A stretch of 64,000 nucleotides of DNA, taken from the NCBI GenBank assembly GCA_950295325.1, contig OX485803.1:45523554-45587553 (forward strand). The letters run 5' to 3'. The notes below the pieces were generated by a model. That model had not been told where the DNA came from. It saw only the letters and a program-made list of their open reading frames with translations, and searched no databases. Made by a program: the position numbers and the translations under genes. This stretch comes from Polytrichum commune. Lineage: Eukaryota > Streptophyta > Polytrichopsida > Polytrichales > Polytrichaceae. Positions 1 to 53,200 of this stretch are shown one piece after another. Every line of letters begins with the position of its first letter. Position 1 is the stretch's first letter.

Positions 1-3000
1 GCTGGTGACACACATTAAAATCAAAGCCTTCAAGAGCTTCTTGCATTGAGTTGCCGCCTGATCAAGCTTAGTTGATTGAAGTCCGGACATCCAATGAGAC
101 TTCGGCAAATAAGTGCCCCCACACAGTAGGGCGACCCCTTTACTGGGAAGAGGACTGCTAGCTACAGCTACCCACACGATTCATGATGAATATATAGTCG
201 ACATGAGCTACTTTCGAGATCAACCTCTGCTTATCACTTGATGATGAACAACCTTTGCAGCAAGAATGTTAGCCGAGTGCTAGCTTCACATAATGACTGA
301 TTTGTCGGCAGGTAATGAATATTACGGTGATGGGAATATGCCTTCGTGAACCTGCTGCATCTTTATCCTGCAGACTCAAACTTGGTGAGATTAATTAAAA
401 GTGGGCAGGCCGTCTGGATCAATAATTACACCTGCAGCATAAAGGCAGCTCAAACCGTTTTCCATTTGTCGTTATGATGGGTTACAAAAGGCAGAGCGAA
501 CCACCACAGTAGTACTCATGAATTCCTATGTTAAGCTGCAGCAGCAAGTTTCATGAGGTTGATCATCATCCCGGGGTGGCAACTCTCCCTTTTATATCAG
601 TTGTTTCTAAAGCACTTCTAAGACTTCTAATGGATTAATGATCTGTTCTTTCAGAAAGAGGAGAAACGTGCTTGGAAAGGGGCATTGGAGGAGTCTATTG
701 GTTTGATGTGTGACTGAATTAGAAAAGGATTGCACTTTCAAATGGCATTTTTAAAGAAAAAAGAAGCGATTTTTTTTATTAAAAAAAATAGGGGTCAACA
801 TCCAATCCCCCTGGATGTCGAATTTCTCTTATAGAAAAAATATATAATTTTTTCTTAGAAATTTTGGTCAGAGAAATGCTTATGATACAGAAGTAGCTCC
901 CAAAAAATGCTTCTTAAACATGGTTTAGCAGCTCCAAACCAATTTCTACAGATCTGGAGGGTTACAGATAATTGCCAAACCAGGGGTTGATCATCATGTC
1001 TAGTTAGATGATCACAGATAAAGTGATCACCCGCCGGATCAAGGGCATTTGACTTAGAGCAAGCGAGCACATGAGCAGATACATTCACATGAATATTATA
1101 TGATAATTTGGGGAGTTGACCATCGACCACTTATAGAATCTGTGCACCCAGCTGTGTATGCATCCCAAAAAAATTTGAAGCAAGTTTCTTTTGAAGGACA
1201 ACCACTATTAAATGTGGGATCAGCGCCGTCCATGGGTGGCCTGTCTGAGGTCGATCTAATGAATGCTGCATGTCAACCATGGGTATATTTAAGCAGCTAA
1301 AGAATATAGGTGATCATCACATCGCATTACATCACCTTTGTAGGTAGCCTGGATAACTCTGATCTGATCAGTCGATGAGTTTGTCGAGGATCACATGACC
1401 AGCTAAGCAGATCTGTTCCACAGTAGTCAACCAACCAGGAGTTGACTAATCAGCAACTCAATCTCAAAGCTTGGTATTAGCAATGATGCAGTATGATCAC
1501 GGGCAGGTTCAGCAGCAGCATCTCTGATCAATGAATGATTTCATTAGTTGTACACTGTGCCGAAGGTTTTGAGTAAGTATGATCATTCCAAGGAGGCTGA
1601 GGCTGCATTCATTTGCAAGAAGTTGAGTGCTGATGATCATGTGTGGCCAGTCTGATGAATTAAATGCATGTCAACCATAGGAATCATGGTTATGATTTGG
1701 GAAGGAGCCTTCCATCATCACCTACATCACCTTCTGGTGGCTGTATTACACAATATAAGTAATGGCAGTGCTTGTTTTCAAATTTGCACTAAGGTATGTG
1801 CCTCATATAAAATATGGCATATGTTGTGGACATCAGCTAAACTTCGAGGTGGTTGCAACATTTGGTGGAACCTTTGAAAGCTAATGTTCGAATGCGCCAT
1901 ACATCAAATTGTGGAGCCACATGAGAGACTCAAATGATGGGCAGTGACCAGGTGAGAGTTTTAGTGCTGGTAACTTATACCAACACGAATTCATTGGTAA
2001 CCTAAGGAGTGATTCTTTTGAGCTGTGATATGATATATCCTATTATATTGGTGGTGCAAGTCATCAGTTCTGAGGGGCACCATATGCAAATACAATAGGC
2101 TTGATGTAATGTGTGGAACAAGTTAAGTAGTGATTTAAATAATTAGGGTAAACAACTACCACAGGGTATCGTCTTGATTGAGACTTTTGAGTGCCAAATG
2201 GTATGAACTTTTCATATAGGATTCACCAATGTGCTCATCACTATTGAACATTGTGTGTTAAAATAATAATACTCTTGCAATATTATATAGATCTCTGACA
2301 AATGTTTTGTAGAAAGTCACTTTACTTGCCTTAAGATGTTGAGGTACTAAATTTGAACATAATTGGTTTTAGAGGATATGTAGAGCACACATACACATTT
2401 CTCCTCTGGAGGCCCTTCCTTTTTCCTCTAAGAGCATTCAAAAATTTAGATATTTAATATAGTGAGTGACAATAATTATTATTGTGCAGTAAAATAAAAG
2501 TATTAAGACAATCCAAAGTGGATCATCATCATTCAAAAACATCCACTAATAGCTACTGGTCGCCCAATTGCCCAAATCAAATGCATATCATGTCATGACC
2601 TTTATTACAAGGTTGACCATTGTAGCCTGCCCTATAGAATTACAACCAAGTGAACACATCACATTCATTATTGTCCATTGCACTTGAAAATTTGCAACTA
2701 AATTAGATCACAGTACCCAAGCATAACATCATACATGCAGAATTCCAAACAAAGAACTAAAACAAAACAGGCACTTCCATTGATGCTCAATAATGGAATG
2801 ATGAAAGGACAATATGTTAATTAAAATATCCTACATGTATACAGTGTAGGTGTATTATCACCCGATCCCTTTCATGCATTGAATTATACAAGTGTTAATG
2901 GGTGCCAGTAGGTCAAGTGTTCAATGATGAAGGAACCCAAGAAGCAACAATATGAAGTAACACACATAGCACAAGCATTGCGCCCAGTAAGTCATATTTC

Positions 3001-44085: not shown

Positions 44086-47000
44086 ATGAGGAAAAAGGTG
44101 AGAAAGAAAACCCCTCTTCCAGAAATACAGGAGGAGGGGTTAACAACTCCGCTTCGCAGAGGGTCACCCGCATTTGCACATACTAACAGTTTGGATGCAA
44201 GGAGGTTCAATGACATGGAGGCCGGAAACTCACACACAGAGTCCTACTTCACCTCACATGTGGAGATGGCAGCAGCTCTGGTTGATCAGGTCACTAGACA
44301 TATCATTTCTCTCATAGTCTTTTTGGGCATTAAGGGTTCACATTAGCCCACACGATTACTACATGGGTACTTGAACTTCGGGGAAATGGCCAGGTTCACC
44401 TATTATTTTTCAAACGATGGTGGTAATATGTGTGATCTATGATCATGTAGTTAAAGCATAATTATTTCCCATGGGCATTGAATTTTCTGTGCTGACGAAG
44501 TGCAAAGTGTTCATTTGCGAGTGACTTTTTTGTTACATTGCAACTGTGATTGGTATGATGTCTTTGTTCCCATGTCAACGGATGATTAAATGGGAAAATA
44601 AATGTTGTTTATGCACTGCAGGCAATGATGGGCAGGTGGATGCCATTGGCAGTAGTTTATCACAAAGATTACCAAAGTGCCAAGCGAGCGTTTCTGCTGT
44701 ATCACCAATTGTTTCTTGCCCGAGGCATCATTTATTTTGTGATGATGATCTTGCCCTTTTTTGAGGTTAGTCACACTGCAAGTTGATGACACTTCAATTT
44801 ATCGTGGAACAACTTTGTATCATTGACTTTCAACCAGAGAGATTGTGCTCAATGAAATGGTTGGAGCAGAGTAGAGCACGAGGAATGGGAAAGACCTTGG
44901 TGCTGATATATCTTTTGAAAAGCTGGTTGAATGCAATTGCATCTTTCAAATGCTAAATCCTTGTTTCTACAAGAAGACACTAAATCATTGAAAGATATCG
45001 GGAGCTGGATGTGTGTACTTGCTGATACAAATGCATGTATTACTGGCTACATAAAAATTGCACGTTTTTATCTGTGTAGATTCCAGCATGGTGTAGTGGC
45101 GATCTACCACATCCTTGTGGAGACCCAAAGCTTTATCCACTCAGTGGCATACCTTACATTCAGCCATGGATATCTATTACTATTCAGGTGCATGTTCCTG
45201 ATTAAAAAATTCCAGGTTTTGTCATCTTCTTTGGTATCATGTAAGCAGGAGCATGTGTCTGTTGAGGCAAAAGATTGAGAGCTGGTGCTTGAGAAACAAA
45301 AATTGACGCTGGTTGTCTATTTTGTAATTAGAATTCAGGGTCATGGTTCTTGTCTGTACAAAAACTTTCAGGTACAGGCTCCTGTTCTGTGTATAGAGGG
45401 TTTTGAGAGACGATTCTTTTACATCTATTTTCAAGATTTGTATTCTTCTAATTTTGGCAGGGTGATGTAGAACTATGTCTTTGTTTCTACACGCTGACGC
45501 AATACTCCATTATTTGTGTTTGTCTTAATAGCAAGCTGATTACACAATTGTCTTTTCCTTATCACTAAAATAGTGGATCAGGGTTTGCATACTCTAATTG
45601 TGTCCCTTTTATTTTGCAGGTTCTATGTTTGTTAGTACTCATTTGGTCTGTATGCTTACAATGGTACTTTATGAGATCGCAGTTCTGGATTGGTAGAGTG
45701 GGAGTTTATAAGGTACCACTTCTGTGTTCCCTTTAATTGAGGCAAAGAGCTATGTTTCAAGATACTAGATCCATTACTCATAGTATGTTTGCTGCAATGG
45801 ACCTCAACCTTAGTGATGGTATTAAGTGATGCACACAATTTCACTCTAGACTTTGGTACTGTGGGCAGGTGGTGACCTTGGCTGTAATGGTGGTTGGTTT
45901 AGTTGCTTCATCCCTTGGCCTAACTGGATTGATAGGAATCAACATTTCCAAGTACATTCGAATAATGATCCCAGTTGTCTTCAGCAGGTGATTATTTATC
46001 ATGAGCTATTTCAAAATATTGGTTGTATTTGTTTTGTAGTGCAAAGAGTGAACAAATGGATGAGTGAATAAGTTCCTTTCTTATCATAGAATAGAGAATT
46101 TGTTGCTCTTCTGCTTTAACCTTTGTCTTGTGAAATTTATTTAACTTGGTTTAATTTTGGCATCATCAGTATTGGAATGTGATGAGCATGTTTGTGCAAA
46201 ATTCTCGGCTAATTCTTTAATTGGGGGTTCACAAGAACAAAATGTAGGGTATGTGTTTAGCGGGTTTAAGTGACGATTTTTTTCTGCTCACCCTAATATT
46301 TATTTTACGTTTGCAACAGGGCTATTCGAGGATGCTTTCGTATGACTTTGCGGATCATACACACCTTTATAGATATTACGGTATATAAAGTCACCTCGAT
46401 TGGCAAATTTGTAGAATGGCCACACTTTCATGTGGGGCTCAAATGCAGTCATCTGGTCATACTTTGGAGAAACTCACAAGGCTTAGCCCTTTTCAAAATT
46501 TTGCTACTGTATTGGTGATAATTGAACATTGTTTTTGGTCATTGTAGGTACTGGTGGTAAGTTTTGTATTGCTCTCAGCATGGCTGGCAACTGCAATATT
46601 TTCAAAAACTGCAGTGGAGTTCAAGGACTTCAGTTCATCACTACTCAATCTCTTTGTGTTGCTTACGACAGCCAATAATCCTGTGGTTTGGGCTTCTACC
46701 TATGAGGCGAACCGTCTGGCTTTCTTTTTCTTCTTTACATACTTGGTGTTGGGGCTCTTCTTCTTGATGAACTTGGCATTCTCTGTCATCTACAGCAATT
46801 ACAAAGCACAGGTATACAAGCACTTGCATTCCATAACTGTATCCAATTTTGATAAACTATTGCAGAGGTTTGGGTTTCATGCAATGTACTCTTCATTTCA
46901 GGAGCGCCACTTGCTTTTTTAGAACATGATTTGGTCATTTGTGAGATTGAAGTTTAGATCTACAAGAAAGAGAGTGCTTGAAGGTTTATCTTCTCATGGA

Positions 47001-49578
47001 GTCTTTTGGAGTATTCTGTACATCATGACAATATTGGGGCAATAGATGAGAAGTTTCATGCTTAGTGCAGTGGTGAAGAATTGTAGCCACATTATAAGGG
47101 ACATAGAGAAAATTTATTTTACTTCCCATATGGGTGTCCATGTCCTTAACGTACAGTTAGCCAATATATTAGTGAGTCAGAAGAAGCTCAATTAATGAGT
47201 TCTAGACTTTTTTTTTTTTGTGCCGTGATTAGCAAGTCAGAAGAAGCTCAATCAATGAGTTCTGAACTGATTTTTGTTTCTTGCTGTGATCTCACGTGCA
47301 TTGTGAACTATTGTGTCACTAAGGTGCCATGGAATGACGAGTTTGACCTTTTCTTGCCTTGTAGATGGCAGTAGAAGTTGCTAAGAGAATAACTGCCCGA
47401 CAAGGGAATTTGCGGGCAGCTTTCAGTCTGTTGGACACCCGCCATCAAGAATGGATTGATGGGGCAACAATGATTGCACTTTTTCTTGCTATTGGTCGCT
47501 ACAGGTGATATGTTGTCTCAGTACCTCCTTCCTTTTTGGTCGAGTTTTCTTCTCCAGAGTCATATATTTGGAAGTATATAGTTTCATGGCTTCAAACTTA
47601 GTATTGTGATTGCTGTGTCAGAAGGACAGAATGATTTGTCTGACAGTTTCTTTCTGGGATGTAGGCACATACCTGATGTTCGGGCGCGTACAAGCCGACT
47701 TTTTCTTGCCCTCAACAAACGAGGAGACTTCAAGATTTGGTCTGATGAGTTTGAGGAGCTATGTGATGTAATTGCCAAAGAGGTTGAGCGGCAACCGGAA
47801 TTGACTCGCCTCAAGAGACGTCGTAGCAACACAGACATGCATTTTGTGAAACATCCCTTTTATGCCTATGTCATCTGGGCTTTAACACTGTCCTCTTTAT
47901 CAATTGCCATTGCTGCACTTAATGTATGTATCTCACAACCTTGTTTGCTTCTGATTGTCAAGACACATTTGTGATTGATTCAACATATAATTCAAATATC
48001 ATGGAAGTCCTCTTGCTTAGCTTCTCACATTGACCTGAATCAATCAAACAAGGTCCCAGGACATTATGGTTGTTCAATGCTATTTTGTAAGTTGAAAAGC
48101 TTGTCTCTATCTGCAAGATTGAGGTGGATTTGTAGCATTTGAAATAAGATCTGATCCTTGAGCACGTTTGTGTAGGTTTCTGGAGCGGTGGAGGTATTGT
48201 TGATCAGTCTTGAGTTTCTCTTTGGTATGTATATCCTGGTAACTTGTTGGAGCTTAATGGGGGTTGTTTCTTTCTTGTGGAGGAGCCTTTGATGGATGTG
48301 TCAAAGTTTATTATTGTTGTGGATTGTAGGAAGTGAAAGATTTGTGATATTTGATCTTGAATGTATTTGGAATTCAGAGAGGAAATCACAGGCTTCATTG
48401 TTCAATCAAAACCCAGATGGATCCAGTTCCTGCAGTTGTGTATACCACCCAAGAACATCAAAGTTTATGAGTCCATGCCAAAAAAAAACAAACCAATTTA
48501 TCAATATCATTGTGATTTTGTGACTGCAGGTTGGATATTCGTCATGGATGGTGTGATGAAAATATGTGTTCAAGGATGGAAATCTTACTGGCGCTTGCAT
48601 GTGAATCGTTTTGATTTTGTGGTTACTGTACTTATTGCTGCCACTCATGTGACTTCCTTTTTCTATGATGATGTGCGCTACTGGTAAGAAACACTCTTGG
48701 TGTACTATTGAACCTATTCAACCATCAAGATTTTCTTCTGCTTCAGAATTTTCTTCTTTGCAAACAATTTATCTCACATTCTATGAGAAATTTTGAGTTG
48801 CATCCAGGCTTGAGAGTCCTTTGTTTGTTTGTGGAGAGTGATAAATTGGCACTCAACAATTAGTTTGTATATAGCTAAGTAGATTTGGGTGCAATTAATT
48901 CCATTTGGGGTTTACAGTCTGCATACAGTTTACTGAAATGTTGATTGCCTGTGCAGGATATCATATCTCATCATTATTCGGTGCTTCCGAGTGCTTTCCC
49001 TTGTATCCATGGTGTCTCGCTGGAAATTGATGGCGGAAACGTTGTTACATGTAGTTCCAGCAACTGCTCCAATATTGGCACTCCAGTTCGTTGTGTGTTC
49101 CCTGTTTTCACTCATGGGCATGCATCTCTTTGGGGGCCTCGTCTACATGGGAAACCCTGCCTTGGAAGGCACGGAATATGCGTTTCACAATTTCTACGCA
49201 TTCAACTACAACGACTTTGCATCTGCAATGGCGACTTCGTTCAACTTGTGTGTGGTGAACAAGTGGTATGTCTTCATGGATGCGTATGCGGCACTCTCCA
49301 AAAACAAGTGGACTCGCGCTTATTTCATTGCCTTCTGGGCCATTGCGGTTGCGTTCACTCTGAATGTTGTGGTCGCGTTCTTTGCCGAAGCTTTCACGAG
49401 TCAAATGGAGAAAGCCGAGAAACTGAAGGCTCGAGAAAAGCGACGCTCGGAGGAGGACTTGCTGCCCCGCTCAGGGCTTTTGCGGAGGAAATCAAGTGGT
49501 TTTGGTTCATTGCCGCACCGCACCGCAAAATCTTTGTCATATTATGATCTCTATGAAGACATTGTCAAGAAGACATAG
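44086..49578 (+). CDS. TPC: Two-pore cation channel (plant TPC family), divergent
   Basis: Plant TPCs are vacuolar cation channels built of two six-helix repeats linked by EF-hands. Twelve exons close in phase to 738 aa (Arabidopsis TPC1 is about 733): 44086-44289, 44622-44765, 45080-45187, 45620-45712, 45869-45987, 46320-46380, 46548-46811, 47365-47504, 47665-47923, 48176-48224, 48530-48683 and 48957-49578. The N-terminus ends AAALVD as in TPC1. S1 is in exon 2, S2 in exon 4, and S3-S4 in exons 5-6. Pore I has TTANNPVVW (283-291). The EF-hand region is 355-406, S7-S10 lie in exons 9-12, and pore II has VVNKWYVF (631-638). Key positions differ from AtTPC1: filter II Val-Asn-Lys, Ser546 at an S10 Arg position, degenerate EF-hand loops, FSKT (261-264) where TPC1 has FEDT, and a shortened S7-S8 loop. 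The tail is basic (KREKRR-like) and ends YYDLYEDIVKKT. I infer a functional but non-canonical TPC, perhaps the 'type 2' described in bryophytes. Confidence 0.92.
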
Positions 49579-50437
49579 GGGGTTTATTTCATACAGTCTC
49601 TGCTGCTACGCATTGCTGGGATCCAAAGCCTTGTCATCTCTCTCTGCTCTCAAGAGCGACTATGGAAACCTCTCTGGGATAGTAGTTGGTAGGTTTTTGA
49701 AACTAGGACACACATACATTTATTATGATCTCTTCCAAGACCATGCTGACAACAAAGCTGATAGTGTCGGTTGAGCAATGGACCCGTCTCTCAACAATTG
49801 GTCCAGTGATTTTGGTTTGTAACTGTGTTCATCACTAGATTAAAGCAACAGAAGAGTTTAGTATAGTCGGTGCGAGTAGCACACATACCTTTGGAGAGCC
49901 CAAAGTGGTGCTGGACCATTTATTTGTAATTCAAAGATTACTTCTAAAGAGTGTAAAGAATGTAAGCGACAGATATGCACGTGTTTCTGCATCTCATTTT
50001 CCCATTGGGTGCATGCCTGTGCTAATTTGGGCTTTTCTTTTGTAGTCATTCATTTGGTAGTGCATACTTGGTCTTGTTCTCCAACCCCGTGTGGTCTCCA
50101 TTGGATTGACGCATCTGACGTGAGTGCACCTAAGTATTTTATGGACAACTATTTGGATATCAGCACATGTAGGGGTTCCATGAGCACATTATGAATTCCA
50201 CATGAGAACCATGACCTCTCATGCTTTTTCTTTCAGATAGGTACATTTAGACTAAGATGAATGTTAGAAAGCATACCAAGTTGTGTTAGAAAGCTTTAGA
50301 ATTCTTTTATAGATCATTCACCTTAAGAACTGAGAATCTTGCAGTAAATAGAATTCATATCTTCACCAAACCCCCAGTGATGGACAGCTCTTTGGAATTA
50401 TATGAGGTGTTTCATAATTACATACCACTCATTGTCT
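49579..50437. other. 3' flank of TPC gene, no further gene
   Basis: Likely 3' UTR followed by intergenic DNA. No other feature seen before the first tRNA gene. Confidence 0.5.
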
Positions 50438-50511
50438 GACCGCGTAGCGCAGTGGATTAGCGCGTTGGACTTCGGATCCAAAGGTCGGGGGTTCGAATCC
50501 CCTCGTGGTCG
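50438..50511 (+). tRNA. tRNA-Arg (anticodon UCG)
   Basis: This 74-nt cloverleaf includes the discriminator base. Acceptor GACCGCG pairs with CGTGGTC. The D arm includes GCGCAGTGGATTAGCGC. The anticodon stem is TTGGA/TCCAA with loop CTTCGGA, so the anticodon is TCG. The T arm has CGGGGGTTCGAATCCCCTCG. No intron. It decodes CGA and probably other CGN Arg codons. Confidence 0.97.
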
Positions 50512-50718
50512 ATTGCTTCTGTTTTCTAATATGTAGAGACACCCTTCTTTTGAGGTTTTGTTCTGACCAGGATACAAGAGTATCCTGCACGTACAGTGTA
50601 GGGCTTTTATAAGGTCAGGTATCCTATTTATAGACATTGGTTTTGCAATTTTACATAATTGAACGGCTCTAAGATTGTGGAGGTGAGAAACGACATTTGT
50701 GTCATCTTCCTAGCATCT

Positions 50719-50792
50719 GGCCGCGTAGCGCAGTGGATTAGCGCGTCAGACTTCGGATCTGAAGGTCGGGGGTTCGAATCCCCCCGTGGTCG
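50719..50792 (+). tRNA. tRNA-Arg (anticodon UCG), second copy
   Basis: The acceptor GGCCGCG pairs with CGTGGTC through one extra G-T pair. The anticodon stem is TCAGA/TCTGA with loop CTTCGGA, anticodon TCG. The T arm has CGGGGGTTCGAATCCCCCCG. It lies 281 bp after the first copy. Changes between the copies in the anticodon stem are paired on both sides, so both fold properly. Flanks are unrelated, so the duplication is old. Confidence 0.97.
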
Positions 50793-53200
50793 CGTGTGAA
50801 AGCTTTTTGTTTCATTAAAATAACATGTGCCCTTTTTTGGCGCAGGTGACCGGAAGGAACAGTCTCTCTGGCAACGTGGCATGTTGTCTAGGGACTGAAC
50901 ATTCAGTCGTTAAACCAATAAGGTGGGTGCACCTACTGTATTTATGGACATTTCTCATTTCAACATGTGTAAAAATTGATTAAAGAAATATTCTATCATG
51001 AGCACATTTGCAGATCCAAATGATAGAGTGGAGCTTTGCTAATTTCGGAGTCAAGGAGGATGTCTCCAGAATTCTTGAAGTGAAAGTTGTAGAGGATCTG
51101 TAATGCTTTGCTTTCGGATATGAACAACATATTTCATACTTGGATTTGTACCTATGTGTAATAATCTAGTATAGATCAGGGTTCACGCGAGGTGCACTCA
51201 GCGTAGAGAAGCAATATTGAGAACATGCATTTTGGAACCCTCCTTGAACTGCAAGAGGCACTCTAGTCCACCTTTATGATGAATATAGTGACAAATTGCA
51301 AAACATGTGTGTGGTGGGAGATTAAGATAAGTCATTGAATTCAACCTGCTTACATTAGTTTCTTTGGAGTGGTGCGGCTCTGTCTCACCTTGATTGGCAG
51401 GTTGCTGTTGGCGAACTTTATTTTTTTTCTAATCATTGTCCCACTTTCAAGGGTAGTTTTTGGAGGTCCGTCTTATGGCATGGTCTGAGTCCTTAGACAG
51501 GTCTATTGTTTGAATTGTTGCCTTCTTACTCGTTTGAGGCACTTTTTGGTGCTTTTGGTTCTCTTGCAAATTGGTGATGTAAGGGATCAGCTATTGCGAT
51601 TCTAATCTACATGTGGTGCACATATTTCAAGCAAAGCGTCTTGGTGATGTGGGAAGGAAACGTATTTGATACTTCTCTTCTGAACTATCTTAAGGAGGGC
51701 CAACTTCCATGCACCAGGGTCATGGCAAGCAAAATCAGTTTTGCCTACAAATGTCTCCTCCATGGTGGCCTCCAATGCTCTCGGACCCCAGTGTGCAATG
51801 TGCACTTTTTGTCCATGCACATAATAAGGCTACGAATCACCTTTTCATTGGGTATCCTTTGATTTTTCTGGCAATCAGGACTCTTTATTTCATGGTGGGG
51901 TTTGACCATGCTGGTCAAAGGACCTCCCATTTTGTGAGAGCTTCAGTCTCAGAAAGTTAAAAGACTCTGAACCTTCAGGAGTGAGTCCATACACATCAAG
52001 CCAAAAAATTTGTTTTGTCTCCTGGTGCTCGTGTCACTCCACAGAAGTTTTGCCGTGATGACAGATTTCATGTTGCACAAAAGGTACAAAATGTAGATCT
52101 CAAACTCTGCAATGATTGAAGAAAGTGCGATTGGGTGCGTGACTTTGAGCTGTCCGCAGTGCTTCAGTCATGGAGTTCTACCATTTGGGGATCATGCACT
52201 TCCCACAAAAGTAAAGCCAGGGCTCAATTTCCCTAATGATCTGAAAACCTTGTGAGTCAGGGTATTCGAAGGTTTGTAATTTTTTGGCCTTAAGATACAA
52301 CCTACTTTTTCTAAGCACCTGTATGTTGACACATGAAAGAAGAATCATGACCAACATAGCAACTCTAATTCACTGTCCAGGAATAGAACTGAATTGGAGT
52401 TTTAATATTGGTCATGTTTCTTCTTTCATGTGTAAATTATGTTGTGTAGTGATCAGAATCCTCTGAAACCTCTGAAAGTTCCCAGGAACAGTCAACCATG
52501 TCCAATAGCACTCCCATGCCTGCAATGCTCGCTTATTTAGGGTCTTATTCGACTCTATTTATCGTATTTCAGCTCGATCAGATTGTGGAACAAAGTGTGG
52601 GTTTTAGAAGTCACAACGTCCATATGTGATTGCCATTACCACATGCGGGCCTCATGTACACCCGAATACATCCTCGCGCCATCGAGCCCTCTGGTAATAA
52701 GCATAACAAGGGTCCTCAATATTGAAAGTAATAGCTGTACTTGCTTGCAGACAGAAGTCAAGTATGAAGGAATTTTCAAGTATGAAGAAATTTACAAGTA
52801 TGTTTTGTCCCTACACTTCAGTGACGTCCACTAAATGGCCATTTGAGTGACAACGTTACAGCTACAAAAAAAGACTCCTCCGACCTCAGGGATGGCCATC
52901 GCTTATAGCATCAGGTATCATTCTAAGAAAAAACAATATCCGTAATGGCTACTGTATGCCAAGATTGTAGCCACAAAATGAGTCTACCGCGGCGATCACA
53001 CCGGAAGCGTCTACTTATACAAATTTTGACATTACAATGCTACTTGCCGTCATCGATGGACAAAAACTCTAGTAGCAGAAAGAAAAGAAAAAGAAAAAAA
53101 AGAAAAACCTCAAAGCTATGCTTACCAGCTTCAAATGCCTTACAAAACGTTTTCAAACTTGAAGCATCCTTTACGAAAGCGCGCTCTTGGAGTAAGTTAC
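50793..53200. other. Intergenic, no gene recognised
   Basis: Open frames at 51,602-51,960 overlap on both strands and match nothing I know. A run of A/G (AAAAGAAAAAGAAAAA) lies near 53,085. The last part before 53,201 should be the 3' UTR of the minus-strand TMEM230 gene. Confidence 0.45.

What the first reader, a model, noticed from the sequence alone, without database searches (positions are those of the whole stretch)
49224..49310. Lysine in the second selectivity filter of the two-pore channel (Val-Asn-Lys-Trp)
The rebuilt protein reads FNLCVVNKWYVFMDAY around residues 626-642. From memory, Arabidopsis TPC1 has M-G-N-W and human TPC2 V-N-N-W at the aligned filter II. This plant protein thus has the human-like V-N pair but replaces the following Asn with Lys634. 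A basic residue at the pore constriction would be expected to change cation selectivity strongly or reduce conduction. The reading frame is otherwise intact, which argues against simple decay.
Basis: partly seen in the sequence, partly recalled or inferred. Interest (0 to 1): 0.8.

Follow-up and report, generated by a model that had tools for sequence, protein, structure and literature searches.

The report
Lysine in a plant channel's filter
A plant two-pore ion channel carries a positively charged lysine at the narrowest part of its pore, where known relatives have a neutral residue; two sister genes in the same genome share it, so it looks like a lasting feature that should change which ions pass, though this has not been measured here.

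Summary
Observation confirmed. A 12-exon gene at 44086-49578 (+) gives an intact 738-aa two-pore channel. Codon AAG at 49261-49263 is Lys634, aligned without gaps to AtTPC1 Asn631 and hTPC2 Asn654 in filter II. It is neither a private mutation nor a sequencing error: of six TPC loci in this genome whose filter II was read, three carry V-N-K (window, L001 on C2, L002 on C6) and three carry Asn. The gene matches the published moss/liverwort TPC1b clade: luminal and EF2 Ca2+ residues are changed and AtTPC1-D269 is V289. The Lys is derived within that clade; sister L003 keeps Asn. In published hTPC2 simulations Asp276 and Asn654 form the first cation site; here that pair is Val and Lys. Most likely (inferred): a Ca2+-excluding, monovalent-cation channel of low conductance. 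Main rival: a non-conducting or regulatory subunit. The Ca2+-dead EF linker is the most conserved block; filter II is the third-longest identical run, though that run alone is only modest evidence (307 of 5000 shuffles reach it). Nine searches of an open-access library showed no text describing this Lys; supplements and subscription papers could not be read. New variant of a known kind.

The parts
44086..49578 (+). TPC1b-type two-pore channel gene, 12 exons, 738 aa, stop codon included
   Evidence: gene model; AtTPC1 homology, E 8.3e-103; two Ion_trans stretches, 7.1e-33
48957..49578 (+). exon 12: S10 to C-terminus, holds filter II
49261..49263 (+). Lys634 (AAG), equivalent of AtTPC1 N631 and hTPC2 N654
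49222..49272 (+). filter II block, residues 621-637, identical in the three K-bearing paralogues (17-residue run)
   Evidence: shuffle control
46665..46685 (+). filter I TTANNPV, residues 283-289; V289 replaces AtTPC1-D269 / hTPC2-Asp276
49279..49281 (+). Asp640, equivalent of AtTPC1-E637; acid kept in all four TPC1b genes here
49183..49191 (+). F608-H609-N610, equivalents of luminal acids E605-D606-D607 of AtTPC1
46758..47785 (+). EF-hand linker, residues 314-418 (three exons with introns); EF2 acids D376/D377 are N/K, yet 72 of 76 residues 330-405 are identical in the three K-bearing paralogues
48961..48999 (+). S10 voltage-sensor segment S534-S546: equivalents of R537 and R540 kept, R531 and R543 are Ser
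49531..49575 (+). C-terminal motif SLSYYDLYEDIVKKT, shared (LYE[DE]I[VI]xK) by the four TPC1b genes

Best explanation
Shown: this is an intact member of the plant TPC1b group, and Lys634 is a derived, retained residue of a three-gene sub-clade at the position that lines the filter II constriction in solved TPCs. Inferred: the protein is an endomembrane (probably tonoplast) dimeric channel whose first, luminal cation site has been turned from Asp + Asn into Val + Lys, two of each per pore. The lysines would exclude Ca2+ and other divalents and lower the rate for monovalents, giving a low-conductance monovalent-cation pathway that neither passes Ca2+ nor is controlled by it (luminal Ca2+ sites and EF2 acids are changed). 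The side chain probably points up to the lumen, near Asp640, in the way Asn654 must rotate before hTPC2 conducts in simulation.
For: Residue and alignment. K in 3 of 6 readable TPC loci, same codon AAG; N in 3 of 6. Synonymous differences pS 0.78, 0.81 and 0.68 among the three K genes against pN 0.20, 0.20 and 0.14. Tree: K genes together 100/99, four TPC1b genes together 100/100 (the K column was not left out). N634K is the only one of 11 K-sub-clade-derived sites that lies in either filter. Summed charge at six pore-mouth positions per subunit: AtTPC1 -5, L004/L005 -4, L003 -1, the three K genes 0. Literature passages: hTPC2 first cation site at Asp276 and Asn654 (PMC11317647); removing D269 and E637 in silico lifts the Ca2+ barrier above 10 kcal/mol and lowers K+ counts from 29 to 7 (PMC8508871); Asn631 described as the constriction (PMC8370997); lysine in the filters of Nav and NALCN goes with loss of Ca2+ selectivity (PMC6259924).
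Against: No current has been recorded and no expression data were available. Two facing lysines could block conduction altogether. The in-silico mutant removed both D269 and E637, while here the second acid is kept as Asp640. The Nav DEKA lysine sits one position earlier (Nav F-K-G-W against V-N-K-W, anchored by eye on the shared Trp; the pairwise program did not align the Nav filter), so that analogy is loose. Filter II's 17-residue identical run is reached by 307 of 5000 shuffles, and 452 of 738 residues are identical in the three genes, so conservation of one residue is weak evidence by itself. Only one genome was compared.
Confidence: 0.45

Rival explanations
1. K-bearing TPC1b proteins do not conduct. 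They act as a regulatory or dominant-negative partner, or signal without flux, through the highly conserved EF-derived linker and C-terminal motif.
For: The linker is the most conserved part (identical runs of 42 and 29 residues; 0 of 5000 shuffles reach 29) though its EF2 acids are gone. PMC9783492 reports, citing Hashimoto 2022, that Marchantia TPC1b mutants keep SV currents while loss of the ordinary TPC1 abolishes them. Pore-mouth charge is neutralised.
Against: Both filters are also strongly kept (13 of 13 residues 625-637; 16 of 18 residues 275-292), which a pure scaffold would not need; S10 arginines R537 and R540 are kept. Absence of an SV-type current does not show absence of any current.
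Confidence: 0.3
2. The lysine is tolerated: its side chain snorkels to the lumen and pairs with Asp640, and the pore stays an ordinary, weakly selective cation pore.
For: Asp640 is kept in all four TPC1b genes; TPC3 chain 6v1q has Gln at this position; Asn654 of hTPC2 turns to the lumen when the filter conducts (PMC11317647).
Against: Asp640 is also present in L003, which has Asn, so it did not arise with the Lys; a second acid (D269) is lost at the same site.
Confidence: 0.18
3. The pore is charge-inverted and passes anions.
For: Charge at the six mouth positions goes from -5 to 0 per subunit, and an unassigned nitrate-permeable tonoplast channel is reported in a moss (PMC4412613, seen only in the listing).
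Against: Asp640 and the filter asparagines are cation-type ligands; no known TPC conducts anions (recalled); net charge is about zero, not positive.
Confidence: 0.05
4. Sequencing error, mis-assembly or a decaying gene.
For: None found.
Against: Same codon in three genes on three contigs; intact frames; pN far below pS.
Confidence: 0.01

Closest known systems
Plant TPC1b clade of mosses and liverworts (Physcomitrium clusters 2-4; Marchantia TPC1b pair)
   Same: Two 6-TM domains, EF-derived linker with D14, D22 and T25 kept but EF2 acids replaced (N at the D376 position), D269 not conserved.
   Different: The texts read do not mention a filter II lysine; whether Physcomitrium or Marchantia TPC1b carry it could not be checked (their sequences and the papers' supplements were out of reach).
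Ordinary plant TPC1 / SV channel (AtTPC1)
   Same: Domain order, TTxNNP filter I, Trp632, overall fold family; about 30% identity.
   Different: Filter II V-M-G-N-W against V-V-N-K-W; luminal Ca2+ sites, EF2 and two of four S10 arginines differ.
Animal TPC1/TPC2 (6c96, 6nq0, 8ouo) and TPC3 (6v1q)
   Same: V-N before the third filter II position; TTANNP in filter I of hTPC2.
   Different: Asn (TPC1, TPC2) or Gln (TPC3) in place of Lys; hTPC2 keeps Asp276.
Nav (DEKA) and NALCN (EEKE) filters
   Same: A lysine within a P-loop cation filter.
   Different: Their lysine is at the high-field-strength position, which matches Asn633 here, one residue earlier; and it is one per pore, against two in a K/K dimer.

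Membership tests
Two-pore channel family | Two concatenated 6-TM ion-transport domains with a cytosolic linker | tested here: met
   Pfam Ion_trans in two stretches; full-length alignment to AtTPC1
Two-pore channel family | Filter I TTxNNP and filter II xNNW or MGNW | tested here: met
   TTANNP and V-N-K-W; third position of filter II departs
Plant TPC1b clade | Separates from ordinary plant TPC1 in a tree | tested here: met
   Four TPC1b rows against AtTPC1 + L004 + L005, 100/100; no published TPC1b sequence was available to include
Plant TPC1b clade | EF2 acids replaced, D376 to Asn in most members | tested here: met
   N376, K377 equivalents; description in PMC9783492. No EF-hand Pfam match at E up to 1, while L005 has a sub-cut-off one
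Plant TPC1b clade | AtTPC1-D269 not conserved | tested here: met
   V289; PMC8508871 section 2.2
Plant TPC1b clade | Found only in mosses and liverworts | not testable with these tools
SV channel (ordinary TPC1) | Luminal Ca2+ sites D240/D454/E528 and E605/D606/D607 | tested here: not met
   K, N, Y and F, H, N at these positions
Nav-type DEKA sodium filter | Lysine at the high-field-strength position | tested here: not met
   K634 is one position later when the Trp is the anchor; the pairwise program did not align the Nav filter, so this rests on the motif
TPC1b as a working ion channel | Measured current and selectivity | not testable with these tools
   needs electrophysiology

The most novel reading that the evidence does not exclude
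K-type TPC1b channels form a two-pore channel whose filter charge has been overturned, so that they carry anions such as nitrate, or pass only one monovalent ion with full exclusion of Ca2+, and so give early land plants a vacuolar conductance of a kind not known from TPCs. The anion form could account for the unassigned nitrate-permeable tonoplast channel reported in Physcomitrella.
Probability: 0.06. Interest if true: 0.85.

Novelty: new variant of a known kind. Interest (0 to 1): 0.55.

Why it matters
TPC1b channels have no assigned current. A retained basic residue at the filter constriction, together with loss of the acid opposite it and of Ca2+ control, gives one sharp prediction (K634N and V289D should restore ordinary TPC behaviour) and a natural comparison: sister gene L003 with Asn in the same genome. 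It also offers a natural variant at a site that structural papers treat as central to TPC selectivity.

Tried and rejected
Error or decay: rejected, three genes share the codon with intact frames.

Private change in one gene: rejected.

Exact DEKA analogue: weakened; the lysine is one position later. The pairwise alignment with Nav1.2 domain III aligned only S6, and the Cav1.2 alignment put a gap just after the Trp.

Structure of exon 12 alone: mean pLDDT 59.1, pTM 0.36; not used, no fold search made.

Relatives in viral contigs: 3 pattern matches, none confirmed. Metagenome scans were capped at 0, and the prokaryote genome collection was not scanned because it holds no plants.

Results that cut against a simple story: the ordinary copies L004 and L005 also lack AtTPC1's EF1 residues D337/N339/E341 and carry N at E457 and D606, so not every Ca2+-site change is special to TPC1b; L002 has E at position 240 and L003 has E at 454. 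The seventh locus, L006, covers only part of domain I and gives no filter II. L004 and L005 lack modelled N-termini; L004's filter II was read. L001 and L002 have an in-frame ATG 30 codons upstream of the start used.

Literature: Konecna et al. write that changing Asn631 to the human state gives Na+ selectivity, but the chain 5tua with the human-like filter differs from wild type at 629, 630 and 265 and keeps Asn631, so that experiment does not bear on 631. Pottosin and Dobrovinskaya mention Arg at the hTPC1 constriction; the mouse TPC1 and human TPC2 chains seen here have Asn. I treat it as a misprint. Guo 2017 and Hashimoto 2022 are not held.

Full report
The observation. The gene model has 12 exons at 44086-49578 on the + strand, all introns GT-AG, and gives 738 aa without a stop. 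Lys634 is AAG at 49261-49263 in exon 12. The best match among solved structures is AtTPC1 (E 8.3e-103), with a gapless alignment through filter II: window FNLCVVNKWYVFMDAY, AtTPC1 FNLLVMGNWQVWMESY, so K634 = N631. hTPC2 reads VVNNWQVFLDAY and pairs K634 with N654; mouse TPC1 has VVNNW and the TPC3 chain 6v1q has VVNQW.

The genome. The window lies in an unnamed assembly of 407.8 Mb, with seven contigs making 406.1 Mb. Searching it with the window protein (52 exon-level matches at E up to 10) and with the L005 model (70 matches at E up to 0.1, many of them short EF-exon pieces) leaves seven places with TPC sequence: the window, L001 (C2:57.99 Mb), L002 (C6:4.69 Mb), L003 (C1:7.43 Mb), L004 (C4:19.73 Mb), L005 (C4:34.15 Mb) and a domain-I fragment L006 (C4:44.35 Mb). 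Filter II was read in six of the seven: VVNKW in window, L001 and L002; IVNNW in L003; IMGNW in L004; VTGNW in L005. The codon is AAG in all three K genes and AAC in L003.

Which family. Window, L001, L002 and L003 share a 12-exon layout, against about 20 exons in L004 and L005. A tree of the seven sequences joins the four at 100/100, the three K genes at 100/99, and L001 with L002 at 100/98; one inner fork on the AtTPC1 side is unresolved, the K column was left in and the drawing is midpoint-rooted. The four match the TPC1b clade described for mosses and liverworts in PMC9783492 (parts 1-2 and passages read): D335, D343 and T346 positions kept in the K genes, EF2 acids replaced (N, K at 376, 377), more basic residues. 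They also match PMC8508871 (passages and section 2.2), which says D269 is not conserved in TPC1b. P. patens is reported to have two ordinary and seven TPC1b genes in clusters of three, three and one; here there are two ordinary, three K-type and one N-type. That the K-type corresponds to clusters 2 and 3 is my inference; no published TPC1b sequence could be fetched.

What else changed. At AtTPC1 positions the window has K240, N454, Y528 for the luminal D240/D454/E528 site, F, H, N for E605/D606/D607, V for D269, D for E637, and Ser for S10 R531 and R543 with R537 and R540 kept. Against this, the ordinary copies L004/L005 also carry Q, R, Y at EF1 337/339/341 and N at 457 and 606. Summed charge at 269, 605, 606, 607, 631 and 637 is -5 in AtTPC1, -4 in L004 and L005, -1 in L003 and 0 in each K gene. 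Of 11 sites at which the three K genes agree and differ from a residue shared by L003, L005 and AtTPC1, N634K is the only one in either filter.

Selection. Among the K genes pS is 0.778, 0.805 and 0.679 and pN 0.203, 0.197 and 0.138: the first two pairs are beyond correction, the third has dS 1.77 and dN 0.153. The proteins are kept by selection. 452 of 738 residues are identical in the three; the longest identical runs are 314-355, 390-418 (both in the EF linker), then 621-637 (filter II), 359-373, 375-388 and 275-288 (filter I). Shuffling the identical sites 5000 times gave a run of 29 or more in none, but of 17 or more in 307 and of 14 or more in 1270. So the linker is extreme; the filter runs are suggestive only.

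Mechanism. In simulations of hTPC2 (PMC11317647, passages) the first Na+ site is around Asp276 and Asn654, and ions begin to pass only once Asn654 turns up to the lumen. Asp276 aligns with D269 and V289, Asn654 with K634. Both partners of that site are therefore changed here. In AtTPC1 simulations, removing D269 and E637 raised the Ca2+ barrier above 10 kcal/mol and cut K+ counts from 29 to 7 (PMC8508871). I infer a channel that excludes Ca2+ and passes monovalent cations slowly. Kept filters and kept S10 arginines argue for conduction; the very conserved, Ca2+-dead linker and the report that Marchantia TPC1b mutants keep SV currents (PMC9783492 citing Hashimoto 2022) leave a non-conducting role open. 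Membrane placement in the tonoplast is recalled from the family, not tested.

Novelty. Nine library searches over open-licence papers, and passages of the papers named, showed no mention of a filter II lysine in a TPC; a search for TPC1 with N631 and selectivity filter returned 0 papers. Figure S2 of PMC8508871 aligns this region for TPC1b and may show it; supplements could not be opened. The clade is known; the charge change in its filter appears unremarked in what I could read.

Noticed in passing
L005:3383-3949 (C4:34148882-34149448) and dispersed copies, e.g. L008-L014: A 567-bp stretch of the ordinary TPC1 gene L005, with intron and EF2 exon, recurs in at least 39 other places on all seven large contigs at 80-86% identity (40 of 109 candidates scored). 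The seven copies read carry intron and exon together, which suggests capture by a DNA-level mobile element.
   Followed up: partly
window 46758-47785, residues 314-418: The EF-hand linker that has lost its EF2 acids is the most conserved part of the K-type proteins (72 of 76 residues 330-405 identical in three paralogues), so it seems to have a new, Ca2+-independent task.
   Followed up: partly
window 49531-49575: A C-terminal motif, SLSYYDLYEDIVKKT, is shared by the three K genes and, as DNLYEEIVKK, by L003; it is not seen in the AtTPC1 chain end or in the L005 model, whose ends are incomplete.
   Followed up: no
L006 (C4:44.35 Mb): A fragment of an ordinary TPC1 covering part of domain I with filter I only; probably a pseudogene piece.
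   Followed up: no
window 50437-50512 and 50719-50793: Two tandem tRNA-Arg genes with anticodon TCG just downstream of the channel gene.
   Followed up: no
G000 C4:2.05 Mb and C1:76.04 Mb: Two further two-part Ion_trans loci that neither TPC query matched; probably another channel family.
   Followed up: no
L005 filter II: An ordinary TPC1 with V-T-G-N-W, Thr in place of AtTPC1 M629.
   Followed up: no
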